A program made the position numbers and the translations under genes. Shown piece by piece: positions 4,280 through 40,194 of a stretch of DNA of 44,140 bases (the first letter of the stretch is position 1; each line of letters begins with the position of its first letter). The DNA lies in the NCBI GenBank assembly GCA_012735315.1, contig JAAYHS010000012.1, positions 1 to 44,140 of the forward strand, written 5' to 3'. The notes under the pieces were generated by a model, which made no database searches, was not told where the DNA came from, and saw only the letters and a program-made list of their open reading frames with translations. The stretch comes from Bacillota bacterium (lineage in GTDB: Bacteria; Bacillota; UBA4882; UBA8346).

Positions 4280-5329
4280 ATGTCGGATAAACAAAAGGCG
4301 TTAGAGATTGCCTTATTACAAATTGAAAAACAGTTCGGCAAAGGGTCGATTATGAAAATGGGAGACGCCCCCGAAAAGATGAACATCGAAGTAATCCCAA
4401 CCGGCGCTTTGCCGTTGGATGTGGCGCTGGGAGTCGGCGGGATTCCCCGGGGAAGGGTGGTTGAGATTTATGGTCCGGAGTCTTCCGGTAAAACCACCGT
4501 GGCGCTGCATATCGTGGCCGAAGCGCAGCGGTTGGGCGGAATCGCCGCTTTCGTCGATGCCGAGCATGCCTTGGATCCGCTTTATGCGAAAAGACTGGGA
4601 GTTGATATCGATAATCTGCTGATTTCTCAGCCGGACACCGGCGAGCAGGCGTTGGAGATCACCGAGGCATTGGTTAGGAGCGGCGCGATTGATGTGATCG
4701 TGATCGATTCGGTGGCCGCCTTAACCCCCCAGGCGGAGATTGAAGGGGAAATGGGAGACGCTCATGTCGGGCTCCAGGCCAGATTGATGTCCCAAGCGCT
4801 GCGGAAATTAACCGCGGTGATCGGCAAATCGAACACGATCGCCATTTTTATCAATCAAATCCGTGAAAAAGTCGGCGTCATGTTCGGCAATCCGGAGACC
4901 ACTCCCGGCGGACGGGCCTTAAAATTTTATTCTTCGGTCCGCTTGGAGATCCGTAAAGTGGAGACTATCAAACAAGGCGCCGATATTGTGGGCAACCGCA
5001 CCAAGGCCAAGGTTGTTAAGAACAAAGTGGCGCCCCCGTTTCGGGAGGCGGAATTCGACATCATCTACGGCGAGGGAATCTCCAGAGCGGGCTGCATTTT
5101 GGATATGGCGGTGGATCAAAACATCGTCAATAAAAGCGGCTCGTGGTATTCTTACGGCGACAACCGGATCGGTCAAGGCCGGGACAATGCTAAAGAATTC
5201 CTGAAAAACAACCCCAAATTGATGGACGAAATCGAACAAAAGGTCAGACAGGGCGTGGGTTTGGCGAAAATGGAACCGCCCGCGGCCGGACCGCCCGTGA
5301 AAGAGGCTGCCGGAGCTAAAGGAAAATAG
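4280..5329 (+). CDS. recA: Recombinase RecA
   Basis: DNA-dependent ATPase that forms filaments on single-stranded DNA, catalyses strand exchange and triggers LexA self-cleavage. At 349 residues it is full length. Walker A GPESSGKT is at residues 65-72, Walker [11 protein letters not shown] follows at about 140-150, and loop L2 ([19 protein letters not shown]) is intact. The C-terminal tail is rich in Pro, Ala and Lys instead of the acidic tail of E. coli RecA. Promoter and LexA box lie directly upstream, so it is SOS controlled. recX starts three bases after the stop codon. Confidence 0.99.
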
Positions 5330-32847: not shown

Positions 32848-32876
32848 TTGACATCAATGACAGAATTTGATATATT
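32848..32876 (+). promoter_or_regulatory. Sigma-A promoter of the TrpP/ECF operon
   Basis: TTGACA (32848-32853), 17-base spacer, TATATT (32871-32876). Transcription should begin at about 32883, nine bases before the first NAG triplet of the leader. Confidence 0.88.
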
Positions 32877-32891
32877 ATTTTTAACTGGATT

Positions 32892-32954
32892 GAGAATAGT
32901 TAAGCTGAGTTGAAGAGTCGAGTTGAGACGAGTGCAGGCGAGACGTTAGATAAG
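32892..32954 (+). promoter_or_regulatory. Probable TRAP-binding site: 12 NAG triplets
   Basis: Triplets start at 32892 GAG, 32897 TAG, 32902 AAG, 32907 GAG, 32915 GAG, 32920 GAG, 32925 GAG, 32930 GAG, 32935 CAG, 32940 GAG, 32947 TAG and 32952 AAG. Nine of eleven steps are exactly 5 bases (two-base spacers); the other two are 8 and 7. TRAP of B. subtilis binds 11 GAG/UAG triplets with spacers of 2-3 bases, one per subunit. Seven GAG, two TAG and three weaker AAG/CAG are present here. No mtrB gene is in the window. Confidence 0.8.
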
Positions 32955-32969
32955 GAACGTTTTTATGCC
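32937..32969 (+). promoter_or_regulatory. Predicted antiterminator helix in the trpP leader
   Basis: GGCGAGACGTT (32937-32947) can pair with AACGTTTT and GCC (32956-32963 and 32967-32969), 11 pairs with two G-T wobbles, one three-base bulge and an eight-base loop. It takes up the first bases of the terminator stem and contains the GAG at 32940 and part of the TAG at 32947, so bound TRAP would prevent it from forming. Confidence 0.6.
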
Positions 32970-32997
32970 AGGCGCTGGTTGCCTGGTTTTTATTTTT
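32968..32997 (+). terminator. Leader terminator (attenuator) before trpP
   Basis: CCAGGC (32968-32973) and GCCTGG (32981-32986) pair around a seven-base loop, followed by TTTTTATTTTT. It lies 14 bases after the last NAG triplet and 64 bases before the TrpP start codon, so it can only act as an attenuator. Confidence 0.85.
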
Positions 32998-33060
32998 GGT
33001 CAAAAGGCCTCGGCCTTGAGATACCAACAGTACTGATAAAGACTAGGAGGTTAAGCGGAG

Positions 33061-33588
33061 ATGAGTGTGGAGACGAGAGTAGTCAAACGAAAAGGCTTGC
33101 AAGCGGTTGATGTGATGGTGGCGGCGTTATTAATTGCCGCCGGCGCGGTGATCCGCCTTACCGTGCCGCCGATGTTCGGGATAACCCCCAATTTTGCGAT
33201 TGCCATGTATTCATTGGCGATTTTATTAATCAGGCCGAGACTTGGCGAAGCGATTGGGATCGGCGTTGTAGCCGGACTGGTTTGCATGTTTTCTTCAAAA
33301 GCGGCCTATCCGGTGAACCTTGTAAGTGAAAGCGTGGGAGCGATAGTATGTTACTTTGTAATGAGTTTTTTCATTAAAATTAATAAATTTGCCGTGGCGC
33401 CCCTAATCACTACCGCTTTGGCTACCTTGGCGAGCGGTTTGGCTTTTGTCGGAACTTACTTCGTATTTCAACTGGCCCCGCTGGCGGCCATGGCGCAAAT
33501 GTTGATCACGGTGATTACTTTAACGGTTTTAAACGCGATTATCGCCCAATTGTTATATTTCCCCGCCAAAACGGTTTTGAAGAGGTAG
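33061..33588 (+). CDS. trpP: TrpP-like ECF transporter S component (probable tryptophan)
   Basis: Integral membrane protein of 175 residues with five or six hydrophobic helices, typical of ECF S components: VDVMVAALLIAAGAVIRLTVP (helix 1), MFGITPNFAIAMYSLAILLI, EAIGIGVVAGLVCMFSS and later segments. The pattern fits the TrpP/YhaG family, predicted to bind tryptophan. The product is followed by both ECF ATPases and the T component, forming a complete transporter. The leader is a predicted TRAP attenuator, which independently supports tryptophan as substrate. The ribosome site AGGAGG is about 11 bases before the ATG. Confidence 0.82.
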   Translation: MSVETRVVKRKGLQAVDVMVAALLIAAGAVIRLTVPPMFGITPNFAIAMYSLAILLIRPRLGEAIGIGVVAGLVCMFSSKAAYPVNLVSESVGAIVCYFVMSFFIKINKFAVAPLITTALATLASGLAFVGTYFVFQLAPLAAMAQMLITVITLTVLNAIIAQLLYFPAKTVLKR

Positions 33589-33760: not shown

Positions 33761-34657
33761 ATGGATCACCAAGTGAATGAACGAATTATTGAGGTCAAAA
33801 ATCTGGATTTTACCTATCAAGGCGCTGATAAACCGGCGCTCAGAGGGATTAATCTTACGGTCCGAAAGGGCGAGTTAATCGGGATCACCGGCGCCAACGG
33901 GGCTGGGAAAACCACGTTATCCTATTGCCTGAACGGCTTAATTCCCAGTTTTTATGAAGGTTTATTCGCGGGAGAAGTCCGCATCAAAGGGCGTTCGATT
34001 TTTGATTTGAGCATCCGGGAGATTTCTCAATGGGTCGGCTCGGTCTTTCAAGATCCGGAAACGCAACTGGTTTCAGCCAATGTCGAAGAGGAATTGGCCT
34101 TCGGACCTGAAAATTTTGGAATTCATCCAATCGAAATTGAAAAGCGGATCAATTTTGCCCTAAAAGCGGTCGGAATCGAAGGCTTGAGACATTCGACCGT
34201 TGACGCGCTGTCCGGCGGTCAGAAACAAAGGGTCGCCATCGCCGCCGTCTTGGCAATGTTCCCGGAGATCATCATTCTCGATGAACCTACGGCTGAATTG
34301 GACCCGGTCGGGACCGACGAGGTGTTTGGGGTCTTGAGAAGGTTAAATCGAGAATTCGGTCTCACGGTCATTATCATTGAACATAAAATCGAACAATTGG
34401 CGACGAGTTGCGATCGATTGTTAATCATGGATCAGGGGCGAATCGTTTTTGGCGGAGCTCCCGATGAGATTTTCAGGCATTGGCGCGAGGTTCATAAATT
34501 AGGGGTCAGACTCCCTCAGGTTACGGAGTTTTTCGGAAAGTATTTCGGAAGCGAACCGCGGAAGTTGCCGGTAACTTTGGAAGAAGCTCAAGCACTGGCG
34601 GAAAATTTATTAAGTCTGGGGAATGGAGAGCAAGATGAGCCAAACCGCTATTATTAA
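33761..34657 (+). CDS. ecfA1: ECF transporter ATPase EcfA1
   Basis: ABC ATPase of energy-coupling-factor transporters, 298 residues. Walker A GANGAGKTT near residue 46, Q-loop VFQDPETQLVS, signature LSGGQKQRVAIA, Walker B IIILDEPTAELD and the H-loop His in IIIEHKI. The long Q-helix and C-terminal EcfA extension are present. It pairs with EcfA2 as a heterodimer driving the S component upstream. It follows trpP after a 172-base gap filled by repeat copy C. Confidence 0.93.
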   Translation: MDHQVNERIIEVKNLDFTYQGADKPALRGINLTVRKGELIGITGANGAGKTTLSYCLNGLIPSFYEGLFAGEVRIKGRSIFDLSIREISQWVGSVFQDPETQLVSANVEEELAFGPENFGIHPIEIEKRINFALKAVGIEGLRHSTVDALSGGQKQRVAIAAVLAMFPEIIILDEPTAELDPVGTDEVFGVLRRLNREFGLTVIIIEHKIEQLATSCDRLLIMDQGRIVFGGAPDEIFRHWREVHKLGVRLPQVTEFFGKYFGSEPRKLPVTLEEAQALAENLLSLGNGEQDEPNRYY

Positions 34658-35492
34658 ACTGAAGAATCTCAAACAGGATTACGGCCGGGGAGAACCGGTT
34701 TTAAAAGAGATCAATCTGGAAATTTACCAGGGGGAATTTGTCGCGATTATCGGGCAAAACGGAGCCGGAAAAACGACCCTGATCAAGCATTTGAACGGCT
34801 TGTTACGGCCTACCGCCGGAAATATTTTTATCAAAGGACGGGACATCGGCCAAGAGCCCATTTCCGTCTTGGCCCAAAAGGTAGGGTATGTATTTCAAAA
34901 TCCCGATCATCAGATTTTTATGGACCAGGTTTTTCAAGAGGTCGCCTTCGGTCTGAAAAATCTTTCTTTACCCCCCGCCGAAATCGAAAGCAGGACCGAA
35001 AATGCTCTTAAAAAGGTCGGGATCTATCATTTAAAAGACGCCGCGCCGTTGTCCTTAAGCAAAGGCCACCGGCAGAGAGTCGCTTTGGCGTCGGTCTTGG
35101 CAATGGAACCGGAAATCATCATCCTCGATGAACCGACCACCGGGCAAGATTATTTAGAAACGAAACAAATAATGGATTTGATAGCGGATTTGAATAAAAA
35201 GGGACACACCGTTATCTTTATCACCCATGACATGCAACTGGTCGCCGCTTATGCCAAACGGGTCATTTTAATGGGCAACGGCGAAATACTCTTTGACGGC
35301 GCTCCTAAGGAGGTTTTAAACCGAACCGAGTTGTTGGCGCGAACTAATTTGAAACCCTTACAAATTACCGAGTTTTCGCAGTCGTTGCGCAAATATGGGA
35401 TACCGGATAATATCATTCAAGTCGACGCATTGGTGGAAATATTTCGCGAAAAAACCGCCCGATCCCGCAGAGCGCTGGTTAATTGCGGTTGA
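34635..35492 (+). CDS. ecfA2: ECF transporter ATPase EcfA2
   Basis: Second ABC ATPase of the ECF module, 285 residues. Walker A GQNGAGKTT near 44, Q-loop VFQNPDHQIFMDQV, Walker B IIILDEPTTGQD and H-loop ITHDMQL. The signature is LSLSKGHRQRV in place of LSGGQ, so one composite ATP site is changed (Gly to Lys and Gln to His); similar departures occur in other heterodimeric ATPases. The ATG at 34635 (GGAGAG upstream) lies inside the end of ecfA1; an alternative in-frame start is 34623. Confidence 0.92.
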   Translation: MSQTAIIKLKNLKQDYGRGEPVLKEINLEIYQGEFVAIIGQNGAGKTTLIKHLNGLLRPTAGNIFIKGRDIGQEPISVLAQKVGYVFQNPDHQIFMDQVFQEVAFGLKNLSLPPAEIESRTENALKKVGIYHLKDAAPLSLSKGHRQRVALASVLAMEPEIIILDEPTTGQDYLETKQIMDLIADLNKKGHTVIFITHDMQLVAAYAKRVILMGNGEILFDGAPKEVLNRTELLARTNLKPLQITEFSQSLRKYGIPDNIIQVDALVEIFREKTARSRRALVNCG

Positions 35493-35512
35493 GTGAAGGA
35501 GAAGGATCGTTC

Positions 35513-36304
35513 ATGGAATATCTGGCCGTTGATTCCCCGTTGCATCGTTTGAACCCGCTTACCAAACTGATCGGGTTGGCGGCTATTTTCGGCATGGGAA
35601 TGCTCTTTTCCAGTCCAATCATCCTTGCCGCTTTAAGCGGAGTCTTGTTTATTTTATTTAGAGCCGCGAAAGCAACCGCTGTTTTTAAATTATACTTACG
35701 GTGGCTCTTTTGGGGCGGCGCTTTGTTGCTGGCGTTGCAAATTTTATTCTCCCATAACGGTCCCGAGCTTTTGAGATTAATTCCCGAAGATATCCCGTTA
35801 TTCGGGTGGCTGGGAGTGATCAACCGCGACAGTTTAGCGGCGGGATTGACGATGGTTGCCAGGATGGCTGTTTTCGGTTTCGCATTGCCTTTATTATTAG
35901 TGACAACCCAAGTCCGGGATTTAATGGTGGTCTTGGTCGATAAACTTAAATTCCCATACCAGTATGCCCTGATGTTCATCACTTCCTTACGTTTTATCCC
36001 CAGCCTTTTTGCGGAAATTGAGAACATCCTTCAAGCTCAACGTACCAGGGCCTTTGAGTTAAAGACCAAAAACCCGGTAAAGCAGGTGAAGGCTTATCTG
36101 CCGTTAATTCTGCCTTTGGTTTTGATTTCGCTGAAGAAAGCCCAACGATTGGCCGTGGCTATGGAGACCCGCGGATTTGGGCAAGGCAAAAGGACCTATT
36201 TAAATCGGCCGCGTTTTTCCGGGGATGATTTGGCGGTGAGCGCCGGATGTTGCGGTGGTCTGTTATTGATGATTATTTTAAGGGCTTCCGGGGTGTTAAG
36301 TTGA
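35513..36304 (+). CDS. ecfT: ECF transporter T component
   Basis: Transmembrane coupling subunit of about 263 residues with four to five membrane helices and two coupling helices carrying the family ARG-like motifs: QAQRTRAFEL (about 178-187) and AMETRGFGQGKR (about 215-226). It links the S component to the ATPase pair. The ATG at 35513 has AAGGAG eleven bases upstream, 20 bases after ecfA2; the frame is open back to 35483. It ends the ECF module; a copy of the dispersed repeat follows. Confidence 0.92.
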   Translation: MEYLAVDSPLHRLNPLTKLIGLAAIFGMGMLFSSPIILAALSGVLFILFRAAKATAVFKLYLRWLFWGGALLLALQILFSHNGPELLRLIPEDIPLFGWLGVINRDSLAAGLTMVARMAVFGFALPLLLVTTQVRDLMVVLVDKLKFPYQYALMFITSLRFIPSLFAEIENILQAQRTRAFELKTKNPVKQVKAYLPLILPLVLISLKKAQRLAVAMETRGFGQGKRTYLNRPRFSGDDLAVSAGCCGGLLLMIILRASGVLS

Positions 36305-36307
36305 ATT

Positions 36308-36420
36308 ATTTAGAAAATATGGTTCAGAAAAGACGATTACGAGCACCGCTTCGCTGAGCACGAGTACGAATAATATTCATTTTCAGCTTTTACCGTGCCC
36401 CGGTATGCCGGGGCGGACGG
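36308..36420 (+). repeat. Dispersed intergenic repeat, copy D
   Basis: Best-preserved copy. It starts TTTAGAAAATATGGTTCAG, then GACGATTACGAGCACCGCTT and CGCTGAGCACGAGTACGAAT, an A+T-rich stretch and the 7-bp hairpin GCCCCGG-tatg-CCGGGGC (36397-36414). It lies between ecfT and iorA. Confidence 0.8.
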
Positions 36421-36493
36421 TTATCATGAAAAGATTTTCCCCGGCTGGCCGGGTGGTGAATTATTTCAAATCAGTTTACTTGAGGTGACAGAG

Positions 36494-38293
36494 GTGGCAA
36501 AAATACTGCTGATGGGGAATGAGGCCATCGCCCGCGGCGCGGTTGAAGCCGGCTTGAATCTGGCAACGGCATATCCGGGGACTCCTTCTTCGGAGATTGT
36601 CGGCACTCTGGCTAAAGTTGCCGGGGACTATCAATTCCATGTTGAATGGTCCGTCAATGAGAAGGTGGCTTTGGAGGTGGCCGCCGGCGGCGCTTATGCC
36701 GGCGCGCGAACTTTGGTGGCTATGAAACAGGTTGGCCTGAATGTGGCCGCCGATCCTTTGATGAGCCTTGCTTATATTGGAGTCAAGGGGGCGATGGTGG
36801 TGGTGGTCGCCGATGATCCGGGCCCCCATTCTTCACAGACCGAACAAGATACGAGGACTTTTGCGAAATTCGCCAAGATGCCGTTGTTCGATCCGGCAAC
36901 TCCCCAAGAAGCGTTGGCGATGACCAAGGCGGCATTTGAAGTATCGCACCGGCGCGGGTTGCCGGTGTTCCTCAGGCCCACCACCCGGGTCTGCCATGCC
37001 ACCGAAGGGATTGAATTCTCAAAACCAGTGGCCAATAAACCCGACGGCTTCTTGAAGGATCCCAAGTGGGTGATTTTCCCGCGGTTATCCTATTTGAAAC
37101 ATCGATGGCTTGAGGAGGAACTGCCCCAAATAGCCGCGGAATTTTCGACGAGCCTTTGGAACAGGATTGAACCCGGCTCCCGCTTGGGAATCGTGACCGG
37201 CGGGGTATCGTACTTATATTTGAAGGAAGCCGTAGCCGATCTGGGGCTAAAACCGACCATTTTAAAGATCGGCACTCCGCATCCTTTCCCGACCGGGATC
37301 GCCGCGGAATTTTTATCCCGAGTGGATCGGGTAATCGTGATCGAAGAATTGGATCCGGTTTTGGAAGAGGGAATTGTGCAGGTGGCGGCACTAACCGGGT
37401 TTCAAGGCCAAATCCACGGGAAACGTTCCAGCGAACTGCCGAAGGCCGGGGAATATAGCTTTGATTTGGTCCGCCAGAGTTTAATTGAGATATTAAAAAC
37501 GGAAGTTCCGCGGGCGATCAAGGCTGAAAATGGAAAAGCCCCGGAATTACCGGTCCGTCCGCCGGTATTGTGCGCCGGTTGCCCCCATCGGGCTTCATTT
37601 TATGCGGTTAAACTGGCTACTAAAGGGATGAATGCAATTTATACCGGGGATATCGGTTGTTATACCCTGGGGAACGCTCCGCCCTTGTCGATGGTTGACA
37701 CCTGTCTTTGTATGGGAGCGGGGATAACGGTTGCCCAAGGGTTGCGCCGGATTGAACCCCAACGGCCGGTGATCGCTTTTATCGGCGATTCCACCTTTTT
37801 TCATACCGGAATCCCCGGGGTGATTAATGCGGTCTATAATAATCATGACGTTAAAATCATTTTGCTCGATAACGCCACCACGGCGATGACGGGCCATCAA
37901 CCCCATCCCGGCATGGGGAGGACCGCTACCGGGGAGAAGGCGGCAACGCTCGACCCGGTGGCGCTGCTTCGGGCTTGCGGGGTGGGTTTTGTCGAAGCCG
38001 CCAATCCGTTGGATTTGAAAACCGCGAACGACATCGTTGCGAGAGCGATTGCCTTTCCGGGGGTTGCGGCGGTGGTAATGCGGGCGCCGTGCGCCGCCCT
38101 TGTCAAGCCGGACCGCCGCTACCGGGTGGATGCTGATCAGTGTACCGATTGTCGGTTATGTCTCCGGGAATTGGGTTGTCCCGCCTTTTACATCGCGGAA
38201 AAACCGCAAATCGGGCTATCCTGCCGGGGGTGCGGTTTGTGCGGCCAAATCTGCCCGAAGGGCGCCATTAAGGAGGTGTCCGACAGTGAATAG
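36494..38293 (+). CDS. iorA: Indolepyruvate ferredoxin oxidoreductase, alpha subunit
   Basis: Thiamine-diphosphate enzyme subunit that, with IorB, oxidises arylpyruvates (from Trp, Phe, Tyr) to aryl-acetyl-CoA and reduced ferredoxin. The 599-residue chain has the N-terminal PYR domain (MGNEAIARGAVEAGL, YPGTPSSE), the C-terminal TPP-binding domain with GDIGCYTLG and GDSTFFHTG...LDNATTAMTG, and at the end two 4Fe-4S motifs, CTDCRLCLRELGC and CRGCGLCGQIC. The GTG at 36494 follows GAGGTGA and gives the usual length; the frame extends upstream into repeat D. It overlaps iorB by eight bases. Confidence 0.95.
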   Translation: MAKILLMGNEAIARGAVEAGLNLATAYPGTPSSEIVGTLAKVAGDYQFHVEWSVNEKVALEVAAGGAYAGARTLVAMKQVGLNVAADPLMSLAYIGVKGAMVVVVADDPGPHSSQTEQDTRTFAKFAKMPLFDPATPQEALAMTKAAFEVSHRRGLPVFLRPTTRVCHATEGIEFSKPVANKPDGFLKDPKWVIFPRLSYLKHRWLEEELPQIAAEFSTSLWNRIEPGSRLGIVTGGVSYLYLKEAVADLGLKPTILKIGTPHPFPTGIAAEFLSRVDRVIVIEELDPVLEEGIVQVAALTGFQGQIHGKRSSELPKAGEYSFDLVRQSLIEILKTEVPRAIKAENGKAPELPVRPPVLCAGCPHRASFYAVKLATKGMNAIYTGDIGCYTLGNAPPLSMVDTCLCMGAGITVAQGLRRIEPQRPVIAFIGDSTFFHTGIPGVINAVYNNHDVKIILLDNATTAMTGHQPHPGMGRTATGEKAATLDPVALLRACGVGFVEAANPLDLKTANDIVARAIAFPGVAAVVMRAPCAALVKPDRRYRVDADQCTDCRLCLRELGCPAFYIAEKPQIGLSCRGCGLCGQICPKGAIKEVSDSE

Positions 38294-38882
38294 CCTGAAT
38301 ATCGTGATTGCGGGAGTCGGGGGACAAGGTACGATTTTGGCCTCCCGGGTATTGGCGCAAGCGGCTTTAAACGCCGGATTGAATGCGAAGACGTCGGAGA
38401 CCATCGGCATGGCCCAGCGGGAAGGTTCGGTTCAGAGTCATGTTCGGATCGGCGACGTCGATCTGGGGCCGGTAATTGGAATCGGGCAGGCCGATATTTT
38501 AATCGGCTTTGAACCGGCCGAAGCTTTAAGGGCTTGTGGATTAGTTAAACCTGGCGGGTTTGGTTTGGTAAATAGTCATCCGATTCTGCCGGTAACGGTC
38601 GCCTTGGGAAGCGCGGCTTATCCGTTGGAGCGGATTCTGGACTTTCTCAGCGCTCAACCGTTTCCGGTCGGTCTTTTGAATGCCTTTGAAACAGCGGTAG
38701 CCGTTGGAAATATCAAAACGATCAACGCCGTGATGTTGGGGGCTTTAGCTGGTAGCGGCAGATTGCCTTTGAACAAGGAGATGATCAAAGAGGTTTTATT
38801 GGAATTGGTTCCGGAACAGTTCCGGGAGATAAATGAGCGAGCTTTTGAGATTGGCAGTAAAGTTTTAGAGGAGGCCAGTTGA
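38286..38882 (+). CDS. iorB: Indolepyruvate ferredoxin oxidoreductase, beta subunit
   Basis: Gamma-type domain subunit of 198 residues that completes IorA. The N-terminal IVIAGVGGQGTILASRVLAQ and TSETIGMAQREGSVQSHVRIG are family hallmarks. The GTG start overlaps the iorA stop codon and has AAGGAGGT at the right distance, so translation is coupled. The frame remains open upstream to 38100, within iorA, but that part is a shadow. The acyl-CoA ligase gene begins one base after its stop. Confidence 0.95.
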   Translation: MNSLNIVIAGVGGQGTILASRVLAQAALNAGLNAKTSETIGMAQREGSVQSHVRIGDVDLGPVIGIGQADILIGFEPAEALRACGLVKPGGFGLVNSHPILPVTVALGSAAYPLERILDFLSAQPFPVGLLNAFETAVAVGNIKTINAVMLGALAGSGRLPLNKEMIKEVLLELVPEQFREINERAFEIGSKVLEEAS

Positions 38883-38883
38883 G

Positions 38884-40194
38884 ATGATTAACAAAGTGAT
38901 TCCTTTAGAGTACCAAGATTTGCACGATCCGGGTTATACCCAAATGAACCGGGAGGAAACCGCCGGTTTTTTGGAACAATCATTACGGGATTTGTTGCGG
39001 CGGGTCGGCGAACATAGCACATTTTATCGCAAAAAGTTTCAGGAATGCGGCTTCAATCCGATGGATTTTTCAGAGATGAGCGATTTTACGAAACTCCCTT
39101 TCACTTATAAGGAAGAGCTTAGGGAAGCTTATCCCCTGGGACTGCAGGCCGTTCCCGACCGTGATGTGGTGCGGATCCATTCATCTTCGGGAACCACCGG
39201 CAAAGCGGTGATCATTCCTTATACTAAAAAAGACGTCTATAACTGGTCGGTAATGTTCGCCCGTTGTTACGCGTTTGCCGGCGTCACCAGAGAGGATCGG
39301 GTTCAAATTACCCCCGGATATGGTCTGTGGACCGCCGGGATCGGATTTCAGGCCGGAGCGGAGCGTTTAGGCGCGATGGCCATACCGATGGGGCCCGGGA
39401 ATACCGAGAAACAGATTCAGATGATGCTCGATCTTAAATCCACCGTTTTATGCAGCACCTCATCCTATGCGTTGTTGTTGGCGGAAGAGATTCAAAAAAG
39501 GAAGCTGAGGGAGGCGCTTCATCTTAAAATCGGGATCTTGGGTTCGGAGCGCTGGGGAGAAAAGATGCGCGCCCGGATTGAAAACGAATTGGGGATCGAA
39601 AGTTTCGATATCTATGGCTTGACTGAAATTTACGGCCCGGGGATCGGGATCGACTGTAAATTTCACCAAGGAATTCATTATTGGTCGGATCACCTCTATT
39701 TCGAAATCATCGATCCGCTGACCGGTCGGAATTTACCCCACGGTGAACTAGGAGAACTGGTAGTGACCACTCTCACCAAGGAGGGGGCGCCGTTGGTCCG
39801 TTACCGGACCAGGGATTTGACCCGGATGATCCCGGGAATTTGTCCTTGCGGCAGCGTTTATCCGCGAATCGACCGGATTTTGGGGCGGAGCGACGATATG
39901 ATTAAAATCAAGGGCGTCAATATTTACCCCGGTCAGATTGAAGAGGTTTTGAAAGAGACCGAGGGAGCGAGCAGCGAGTATCAGATCCGCTTGATGAGGG
40001 TGGAATCCAGGGACCATATGCAATTAACGGTAGAAGTCGAACCGGGTTCGGATCCGGAACAGGTGGCCGAACGGATAAGAGCGAATTTTAAAAAGCGGAT
40101 CGGGATTTTAATCGATGTCCGGGCGGCGGCTTTGGGAGAGTTGCCGCGGAGCGAGAAAAAATCAAAGCGGGTGTTTGATGAAAGGGAGATTTAA
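38884..40194 (+). CDS. paaK: Phenylacetate-CoA ligase family protein
   Basis: AMP-forming acyl-CoA ligase of 436 residues. HSSSGTTGKAVIIPYT is the ATP-binding P-loop (about 100-115), YGLTEIYGPG the adenylation motif, LVRYRTRDLTR the core A8-like region with the hinge, and GRSDDMIKIKG leads to the C-terminal lid. Relatives activate phenylacetate, indoleacetate or benzoate-like acids. Downstream of iorAB it probably handles arylacetates: reactivating them, or running in reverse to conserve ATP from arylacetyl-CoA (inference). GAGGAGG ribosome site. Confidence 0.9.
   Translation: MINKVIPLEYQDLHDPGYTQMNREETAGFLEQSLRDLLRRVGEHSTFYRKKFQECGFNPMDFSEMSDFTKLPFTYKEELREAYPLGLQAVPDRDVVRIHSSSGTTGKAVIIPYTKKDVYNWSVMFARCYAFAGVTREDRVQITPGYGLWTAGIGFQAGAERLGAMAIPMGPGNTEKQIQMMLDLKSTVLCSTSSYALLLAEEIQKRKLREALHLKIGILGSERWGEKMRARIENELGIESFDIYGLTEIYGPGIGIDCKFHQGIHYWSDHLYFEIIDPLTGRNLPHGELGELVVTTLTKEGAPLVRYRTRDLTRMIPGICPCGSVYPRIDRILGRSDDMIKIKGVNIYPGQIEEVLKETEGASSEYQIRLMRVESRDHMQLTVEVEPGSDPEQVAERIRANFKKRIGILIDVRAAALGELPRSEKKSKRVFDEREI

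What the first reader, a model, noticed from the sequence alone, without database searches (positions are those of the whole stretch)
32848..33060. TRAP-type attenuator in front of a TrpP-like ECF transporter
Seen: a consensus promoter, 12 NAG triplets (7 GAG, 2 TAG, 2 AAG, 1 CAG) with nine of eleven steps exactly 5 bases, then a terminator hairpin with T-run, and a competing helix (32937-32969) that includes two of the triplets and takes up the terminator's first bases. Known: B. subtilis TRAP binds about 11 GAG/UAG triplets with short spacers, blocks an antiterminator and causes termination of the trp operon when tryptophan is high; B. subtilis trpP is instead controlled by TRAP at translation. 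Inference: here tryptophan uptake by a complete ECF module is controlled by TRAP through transcription attenuation, a different solution from Bacillus.
Basis: partly seen in the sequence, partly recalled or inferred. Interest (0 to 1): 0.88.

Follow-up and report, generated by a model that had tools for sequence, protein, structure and literature searches.

The report
Double TRAP switch on tryptophan-uptake operon
When the cell has enough tryptophan, a ring-shaped RNA-binding protein probably shuts off this bacterium's tryptophan-import operon twice on one message, first by stopping transcription early and then by covering the ribosome start site; this is a new arrangement of a known switch, shared by its relatives.

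Summary
In detail: 12 NAG triplets (9 of 11 steps exactly 5 nt), a consensus promoter, a terminator and a competing helix. No simulation or shuffle reached the array's score. The TRAP interpretation passes its own tests. The genome encodes TRAP. Of 33 named trpP loci, 26 have strong arrays upstream of trpP, nearly always followed by a terminator. Array and TRAP gene co-occur: 23 of 26 genomes with an array, 0 of 5 without.

It is conserved in the clade and recurs in the mtrB-linked aroF/trpE leader and at trpD. So the Bacillus-type ribosome-blocking site is present as well as the attenuator. Among 332 SD-preceded starts, the 11 best-scoring were all trpP or paaK. Hence the downstream paaK, and probably iorAB, look like part of a tryptophan-repressed uptake and salvage operon.

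Weak points: the antiterminator helix is good in the window but not significant family-wide, and nothing was tested experimentally. Verdict: a real TRAP target, a new two-site variant of a known kind. Attenuation of trpP is widespread in clostridial Bacillota, not peculiar to this genome.

The parts
32848..32876 (+). sigma-70-type promoter TTGACA-17-TATATT with TG before the -10
   Evidence: 11 of 12 consensus matches; sequence
32892..32954 (+). TRAP-binding array 1 (12 NAG triplets, 9 of 11 steps = 5 nt)
   Evidence: score 15, null maximum 7.5; arrays at the same place in 26 of 33 named trpP loci and in the clade
32937..32969 (+). putative antiterminator helix, exclusive with the terminator (shares GCC 32967-32969) and with array triplets at 32940 and 32947
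   Evidence: -9.1 kcal/mol, z -3.0; pairing of the terminator arm with upstream RNA not significant across the family
32967..32997 (+). intrinsic terminator (8-bp stem, loop 5, T-tract)
   Evidence: a terminator follows the array in 27 of 30 loci
33047..33082 (+). TRAP-binding array 2 (7 NAG triplets) across SD 33045-33050, ATG 33061 and the first codons of trpP
   Evidence: score 10; conserved in the clade; synonymous-recoding test P = 0.0014
33061..33588 (+). trpP, tryptophan-specific ECF S component
   Evidence: PF17099 E 9.4e-11, 42.2 bits against cut-off 27.2
33761..34657 (+). ecfA1 ATPase
   Evidence: PF00005; synteny
34623..35492 (+). ecfA2 ATPase
   Evidence: PF00005; synteny
35483..36304 (+). 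ecfT transmembrane component
   Evidence: PF02361 CbiQ; synteny
36395..38293 (+). iorA, indolepyruvate:ferredoxin oxidoreductase alpha subunit
   Evidence: TIGR03336 758 bits against cut-off 650.9; next to trpP-ecf in 22 of 33 loci
38286..38882 (+). iorB, indolepyruvate:ferredoxin oxidoreductase beta subunit
   Evidence: TIGR03334 186 bits, below cut-off 205.8; PF01558
38835..38883 (+). weaker TRAP-like array (score 7, 9 triplets) ending at the paaK start codon
   Evidence: stronger arrays at the same place in G001, G004, G005, L065, L074, Heliobacterium
38884..40194 (+). paaK-like aryl-acetate--CoA ligase
   Evidence: TIGR02155 433 bits, below the equivalog cut-off 646

Best explanation
A tryptophan-activated TRAP ring represses this tryptophan-uptake operon at two levels on one message. 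At high tryptophan TRAP binds array 1 on the nascent leader. This stops the competing helix from forming, or acts directly on the elongating polymerase, and transcription ends at the terminator near 32997. Messages that escape expose array 2, and a second TRAP ring covering the SD, ATG and first codons of trpP blocks ribosome binding. At low tryptophan neither site is bound and trpP-ecfA1A2T, probably with iorAB and paaK, is expressed. Shown here: both arrays, the promoter, the terminator, conservation, and co-occurrence with TRAP. Inferred: binding, dependence on tryptophan, occupancy of both sites, the antiterminator step, and that iorAB and paaK belong to the same transcript.
For: TRAP gene in the genome (equivalog score 136.9 against 117), with the TRGxDTxFHHxEKLD and QFTEHTSAxKIRG stretches of solved TRAP structures. 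Array 1 beyond chance, with 26 of 33 named trpP leaders scoring 9.5 or more against 1 of 1,204 background blocks. Spacing of GAG/TAG in the leaders peaks at 5 (185 nearest-neighbour steps of 5 against at most 33 of any other length). Terminator after the array in 27 of 30. Genomes with arrays carry mtrB in 23 of 26, those without in 0 of 5, Fisher P 3.3e-4. Array 2 present in clade members; the 11 best of 332 SD-preceded starts are all trpP or paaK; its coding part exceeds synonymous recoding in the window (P 0.0014), G001 (0 of 5000), G003 (0.0002) and G027 (0.0028). The mtrB-aroF/trpE leader repeats the plan array - terminator - array over the start in several relatives. In a pattern search of the own genome, only tryptophan loci (trpP leader, trpP start, the leader after mtrB, trpD start) extended to real arrays.
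Against: No binding or expression data. The antiterminator helix is not better than shuffles across the family (mean 4.86 paired arm bases against 4.46 +- 0.28), and in G008 the lowest-energy fold does not pair the terminator arm upstream. Array 2 has only 7 triplets, fewer than the 9-11 usually given for TRAP sites, so affinity may be modest. The codon test is not significant in G004 and G005 and marginal in G008. AGA is already enriched among Arg codons near gene starts (10 of 53). Two clade genomes with arrays lack a detected mtrB, though both are incomplete assemblies.
Confidence: 0.82

Rival explanations
1. Attenuation only: array 1 is the TRAP site, and the triplets over the trpP start are just a purine-rich ribosome-binding site with GAG-like codons.
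For: Array 2 has 7 triplets; most Desulfotomaculia and Pelotomaculum leaders have array 1 but no comparable start-site array. Arg=AGA is commoner near gene starts than in whole genes.
Against: The best 11 of 332 SD-preceded starts are all trpP or paaK; synonymous recoding P 0.0028 to 0 of 5000 in four clade members; the same layout stands before aroF/trpE and at trpD.
Confidence: 0.15
2. TRAP causes termination directly, without an antiterminator: TRAP bound just behind RNA polymerase triggers release at the weak terminator, and the 32937-32969 helix is incidental.
For: Family-wide antiterminator pairing is not above shuffles. McAdams and Gollnick 2014 (PMC3913778) report that B. subtilis TRAP can terminate independently of the attenuator RNA. 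The array-to-terminator gap is short (9-32 nt in most loci).
Against: In the window the helix is strong for its composition (z -3.0) and overlaps both array and terminator; terminator-arm pairing is clearly above its null in L053, L064, L074, L077 and L084.
Confidence: 0.3
3. Another regulator: T-box, leader peptide or another attenuator class acts here.
For: Promoter - leader - terminator - amino-acid transporter is also the plan of T-box leaders.
Against: No Rfam family in the window at gathering thresholds; the 5-nt NAG period and its co-occurrence with mtrB are specific to TRAP.
Confidence: 0.02
4. The operon is catabolic (tryptophan import, transamination, oxidation by IorAB, CoA ester handled by PaaK), and the TRAP site only tunes uptake.
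For: IOR enzymes are known from peptide and aromatic amino-acid fermentation (literature named in PMC13285125). The trpP-ecf-iorA order persists in Spirochaetales without TRAP.
Against: Repression of a degradative operon by its own substrate would be unusual. TRAP-like arrays also stand at paaK starts, including where paaK lies apart from the trpP leader (L065, L074, Heliobacterium).
Confidence: 0.35

Closest known systems
Bacillus subtilis trpEDCFBA leader (TRAP attenuator)
   Same: NAG array of 11, overlapping antiterminator and terminator (antiterminator +60 to +111, terminator +108 to +133 in PMC4027176; an overlap of a few bases, as here), TRAP-dependent termination.
   Different: There, from general knowledge, translation of trpE is controlled by the same bound site through an SD-sequestering hairpin; here a second, separate array lies directly on the SD and start codon. 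The controlled gene is a transporter.
Bacillus subtilis trpP (yhaG), translational TRAP site
   Same: Same transporter family; TRAP blocks ribosome binding (Yakhnin et al. 2004 and Sarsero et al. 2000, known here from titles and citations in PMC4347634; full papers not held).
   Different: I know of no attenuator in front of B. subtilis trpP; here array 1 plus terminator precede it, and trpP heads a dedicated ecfA1A2T-iorAB-paaK cluster.
TRAP leaders of the mtrB-linked aroF/trpE cluster in the same bacterial family (L013-L019)
   Same: Array - terminator - second array over the start codon in most of them.
   Different: Biosynthetic rather than uptake operon; not described in the papers I could search.

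Membership tests
TRAP transcription attenuator | TRAP (MtrB) encoded in the genome | tested here: met
   PF02081 E 3.6e-38; NCBIfam MtrB equivalog 136.9 bits against 117
TRAP transcription attenuator | about 11 (G/U)AG-type triplets with spacers of 2-3 nt in the leader RNA | tested here: met
   12 NAG, 9 of 11 steps = 5 nt; 9 of the 12 are GAG or TAG
TRAP transcription attenuator | intrinsic terminator between array and gene | tested here: met
   32967-32997; 27 of 30 relatives
TRAP transcription attenuator | antiterminator that overlaps both the array and the terminator | tested here: inconclusive
   present in the window (z -3.0); family-wide test not significant
TRAP transcription attenuator | tryptophan-dependent binding and termination | not testable with these tools
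   needs in vitro transcription, RNA-seq or an mtrB deletion
TRAP translational repression (trpP/trpG type) | triplets overlapping SD and/or start codon | tested here: met
   33047-33082 spans SD, ATG and codons 2-8; conserved
TRAP translational repression (trpP/trpG type) | 9-11 triplets in the site (range as given in PMC4347634) | tested here: not met
   7 triplets in the scored chain, so lower affinity is possible; the claim here is that it works like such a site
ECF transporter of the TrpP type | TrpP-family S component with A, A' and T components | tested here: met
   PF17099 and PF00005 x2, PF02361; full module adjacent in nearly all relatives
T-box leader | match to an Rfam T-box model | tested here: not met
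   no Rfam match in the window

The most novel reading that the evidence does not exclude
In this bacterial lineage one TRAP regulon uses a standard two-lock design (attenuator plus a separate start-site array on the same message) for both tryptophan synthesis and uptake. It also includes paaK and probably iorAB, which would then make tryptophan from scavenged indole-3-acetate by activation to the CoA ester and reductive carboxylation, as reported for aryl acids in Methanococcus maripaludis (cited in PMC4162585).
Probability: 0.4. Interest if true: 0.7.

Novelty: new variant of a known kind. Interest (0 to 1): 0.55.

Why it matters
TRAP is a textbook RNA-binding regulator known almost wholly from Bacillus. 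If right, the anaerobic clostridial Bacillota, where the gene was found in about half of the sampled genomes of the window's phylum (152 of 299), attenuate tryptophan uptake rather than only blocking its translation, and one clade puts two independent TRAP sites on a single leader. That makes a clean question testable: how much does each lock add, and can two rings sit on one message? The arrays at paaK also give a regulatory argument for the direction of IorAB/PaaK metabolism, which sequence alone cannot tell.

Tried and rejected
T-box or another Rfam leader: none in the window, nor in six loci with no strong array (L056, L058, L059, L079-L081). Anti-TRAP: no PF15777 match in the genome, though that family is short and misses are possible. 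A first pattern for four consecutive triplets in the own genome was no richer than its reversed control and not useful alone; only extension by chain scoring separated real arrays. Family-wide support for an antiterminator was looked for and not found. A paaK array was sought in all orthologues and is absent in Pelotomaculum, Desulforamulus and similar, where paaK follows iorB closely, so it is not a universal feature. Literature: no open-access paper found that describes TRAP attenuation of trpP or two TRAP sites on one leader, but key subscription papers on trp regulation in Gram-positive bacteria are not held, so earlier mention cannot be excluded.

Full report
OBSERVATION. Read directly, the leader has the consensus promoter TTGACA-17-TATATT at 32848-32876, then NAG triplets at 32892, 32897, 32902, 32907, 32915, 32920, 32925, 32930, 32935, 32940, 32947 and 32952. 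A chain score (GAG 2, TAG 1.5, AAG/CAG 0.5, penalties for spacers other than 2 nt) gives 15.0. The highest score in 100 order-2 simulations of the whole 44-kb window was 7.5, and none of 20,000 shuffles of the leader reached 15. The terminator (32967-32987, -12.1 kcal/mol) and the competing helix (32937-32969, -9.1 kcal/mol; only 2 of 200 shuffles folded as well) both fold as described and share GCC 32967-32969. In the fold of the whole 116-nt leader the competing helix is present, as expected for the TRAP-free state.

The second-best chain in the whole window is 33047-33082 (score 10, 7 triplets: 33047, 33053, 33058, 33063, 33070, 33075, 33080). It runs across the SD AGGAGG (33045-33050), the ATG at 33061 (the G of ATG is the G of a GAG) and codons 2-8 of trpP. 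The third best (38835-38883, score 7) ends at the start codon of paaK.

THE PROTEIN. The genome encodes TRAP (MtrB equivalog above cut-off) with the conserved core of solved TRAP structures. In the window's own order, 8 of 10 genomes have TRAP and 6 of 10 have TrpP. In an even draw over the phylum 152 of 299 genomes have TRAP. No anti-TRAP was found in the own genome.

CONSERVATION OF ARRAY 1. All six trpP genes of the window's family, and one in another family of the class, have an array followed by a terminator. In named genomes, 26 of 33 trpP leaders score 9.5 or more, against 1 of 1,204 background blocks from the same contigs, and that one is itself a paaK site. They include Heliobacterium mobile and H. 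chlorum, Heliophilum, Pelotomaculum, Desulforamulus, Desulfofundulus, Petroclostridium and Pseudobacteroides. Spacing of GAG/TAG peaks sharply at 5 nt, with harmonics at 10 and 15. A terminator follows in 27 of 30 loci, usually 9-32 nt after the array. mtrB was found in 23 of 26 genomes with an array and in none of the 5 without (Spirochaetales and two other bins), Fisher P 3.3e-4; the three exceptions are MAGs, two of them from assemblies rated 72% and 85% complete.

ARRAY 2 AND THE TWO-LOCK PLAN. Scoring every SD-preceded start codon with a long open frame in the window and 33 loci (332 starts), the 11 highest-scoring distinct starts are all trpP or paaK. In four clade members the coding part of the array cannot be explained by protein sequence plus codon usage (P 0.0014, 0 of 5000, 0.0002 and 0.0028); in G004 and G005 the triplets lie mostly upstream of the ATG and the test is not significant, and G008 is marginal. 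Arg6, or its counterpart, is encoded by AGA in all seven (usage 0.01-0.12), but AGA is somewhat enriched near gene starts in general (10 of 53), so this is supporting, not decisive. The same plan (array, terminator, second array over the start) stands downstream of mtrB in front of an aroF- or trpE-like gene in several relatives, and a start-site array of 11 weak and strong triplets stands at trpD in the own genome, with a similar one in its genus mate. In a pattern search of the whole own genome, only the tryptophan loci extended to real arrays.

MECHANISM. Most likely, tryptophan-loaded TRAP on array 1 ends transcription at about 32997, and TRAP on array 2 blocks ribosomes on any message that escaped. 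The antiterminator step is plausible in the window but not demonstrated. Across 27 loci the terminator's 5' arm does not pair upstream more than in shuffles (4.86 against 4.46 +- 0.28), and in some relatives the predicted fold does not show it. McAdams and Gollnick (PMC3913778) showed that B. subtilis TRAP can terminate without the attenuator RNA, so TRAP may act here partly on the polymerase itself.

THE OPERON. trpP is followed by ecfA1, ecfA2, ecfT, iorA (equivalog), iorB and a paaK-like CoA ligase. trpP-ecf next to iorA is conserved in 22 of 33 loci. TRAP-like arrays abut paaK in the window (7.0), G001 (9.0), G004 (9.0), G005 (10.0), L065 (16.0), L074 (7.5), Heliobacterium (7.5) and the genome of L053 (7.5), and two further paaK paralogues, in the Heliobacterium and Pseudobacteroides genomes (10.0 each). 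They are absent where paaK directly follows iorB in Pelotomaculum and Desulforamulus. Since TRAP represses at high tryptophan, this suggests the cluster serves acquisition of tryptophan: uptake, and possibly salvage of indole-3-acetate by activation and reductive carboxylation, as reported for aryl acids in Methanococcus maripaludis (cited in PMC4162585). The catabolic direction, known for IOR enzymes, remains a live rival; no computation here decides it.

NOVELTY. TRAP, its attenuator and its start-site block are all known. Their combination as two separate arrays on one leader, and attenuation of trpP, I did not find described in the open literature I could search; the main subscription papers on trp regulation in Gram-positive bacteria were not available. 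I file it as a new variant of a known kind.

Noticed in passing
L108 (own genome C188), 775-832 on the - strand: An 11-triplet TRAP-like array (score 10.5) spans the SD and ATG of trpD; the genus mate G002 has one at the same place (L109 161-213, - strand, score 8.5).
   Followed up: partly
L001 (own C115) and L013-L019, downstream of mtrB: mtrB is followed by a leader with array, terminator and second array over the start of an aroF- or trpE-like gene in most relatives, so TRAP is encoded just upstream of its own target in this lineage.
   Followed up: partly
L065 2940-2994; L145 1426-1455; L141 2731-2759 (- strand): Strong TRAP-like arrays (scores 16, 10, 10) at the starts of paaK-like genes away from the trpP leader, two of them paralogues of the operon's paaK.
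   Followed up: partly
L054 4225-4306 and L055 4226-4307 (Heliobacterium): Two adjacent arrays of 7 triplets each upstream of one trpP terminator, and a longer gap (52 nt) to the terminator.
   Followed up: no
L079, L080, L081 (Spirochaetales): trpP-ecf modules (next to iorA in L080 and L081) without TRAP and without arrays or a known Rfam leader; how they are regulated is open.
   Followed up: partly
L082 (G004) 4501-5041: The trpP frame breaks after 104 codons and the match continues in another stretch: a frameshift or assembly error in that MAG.
   Followed up: no
L046 1789-1852 and 2112-2147: Another genome of the phylum has a 13-triplet array (score 23) downstream of mtrB and a second array (11.5) about 260 nt further on.
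   Followed up: no
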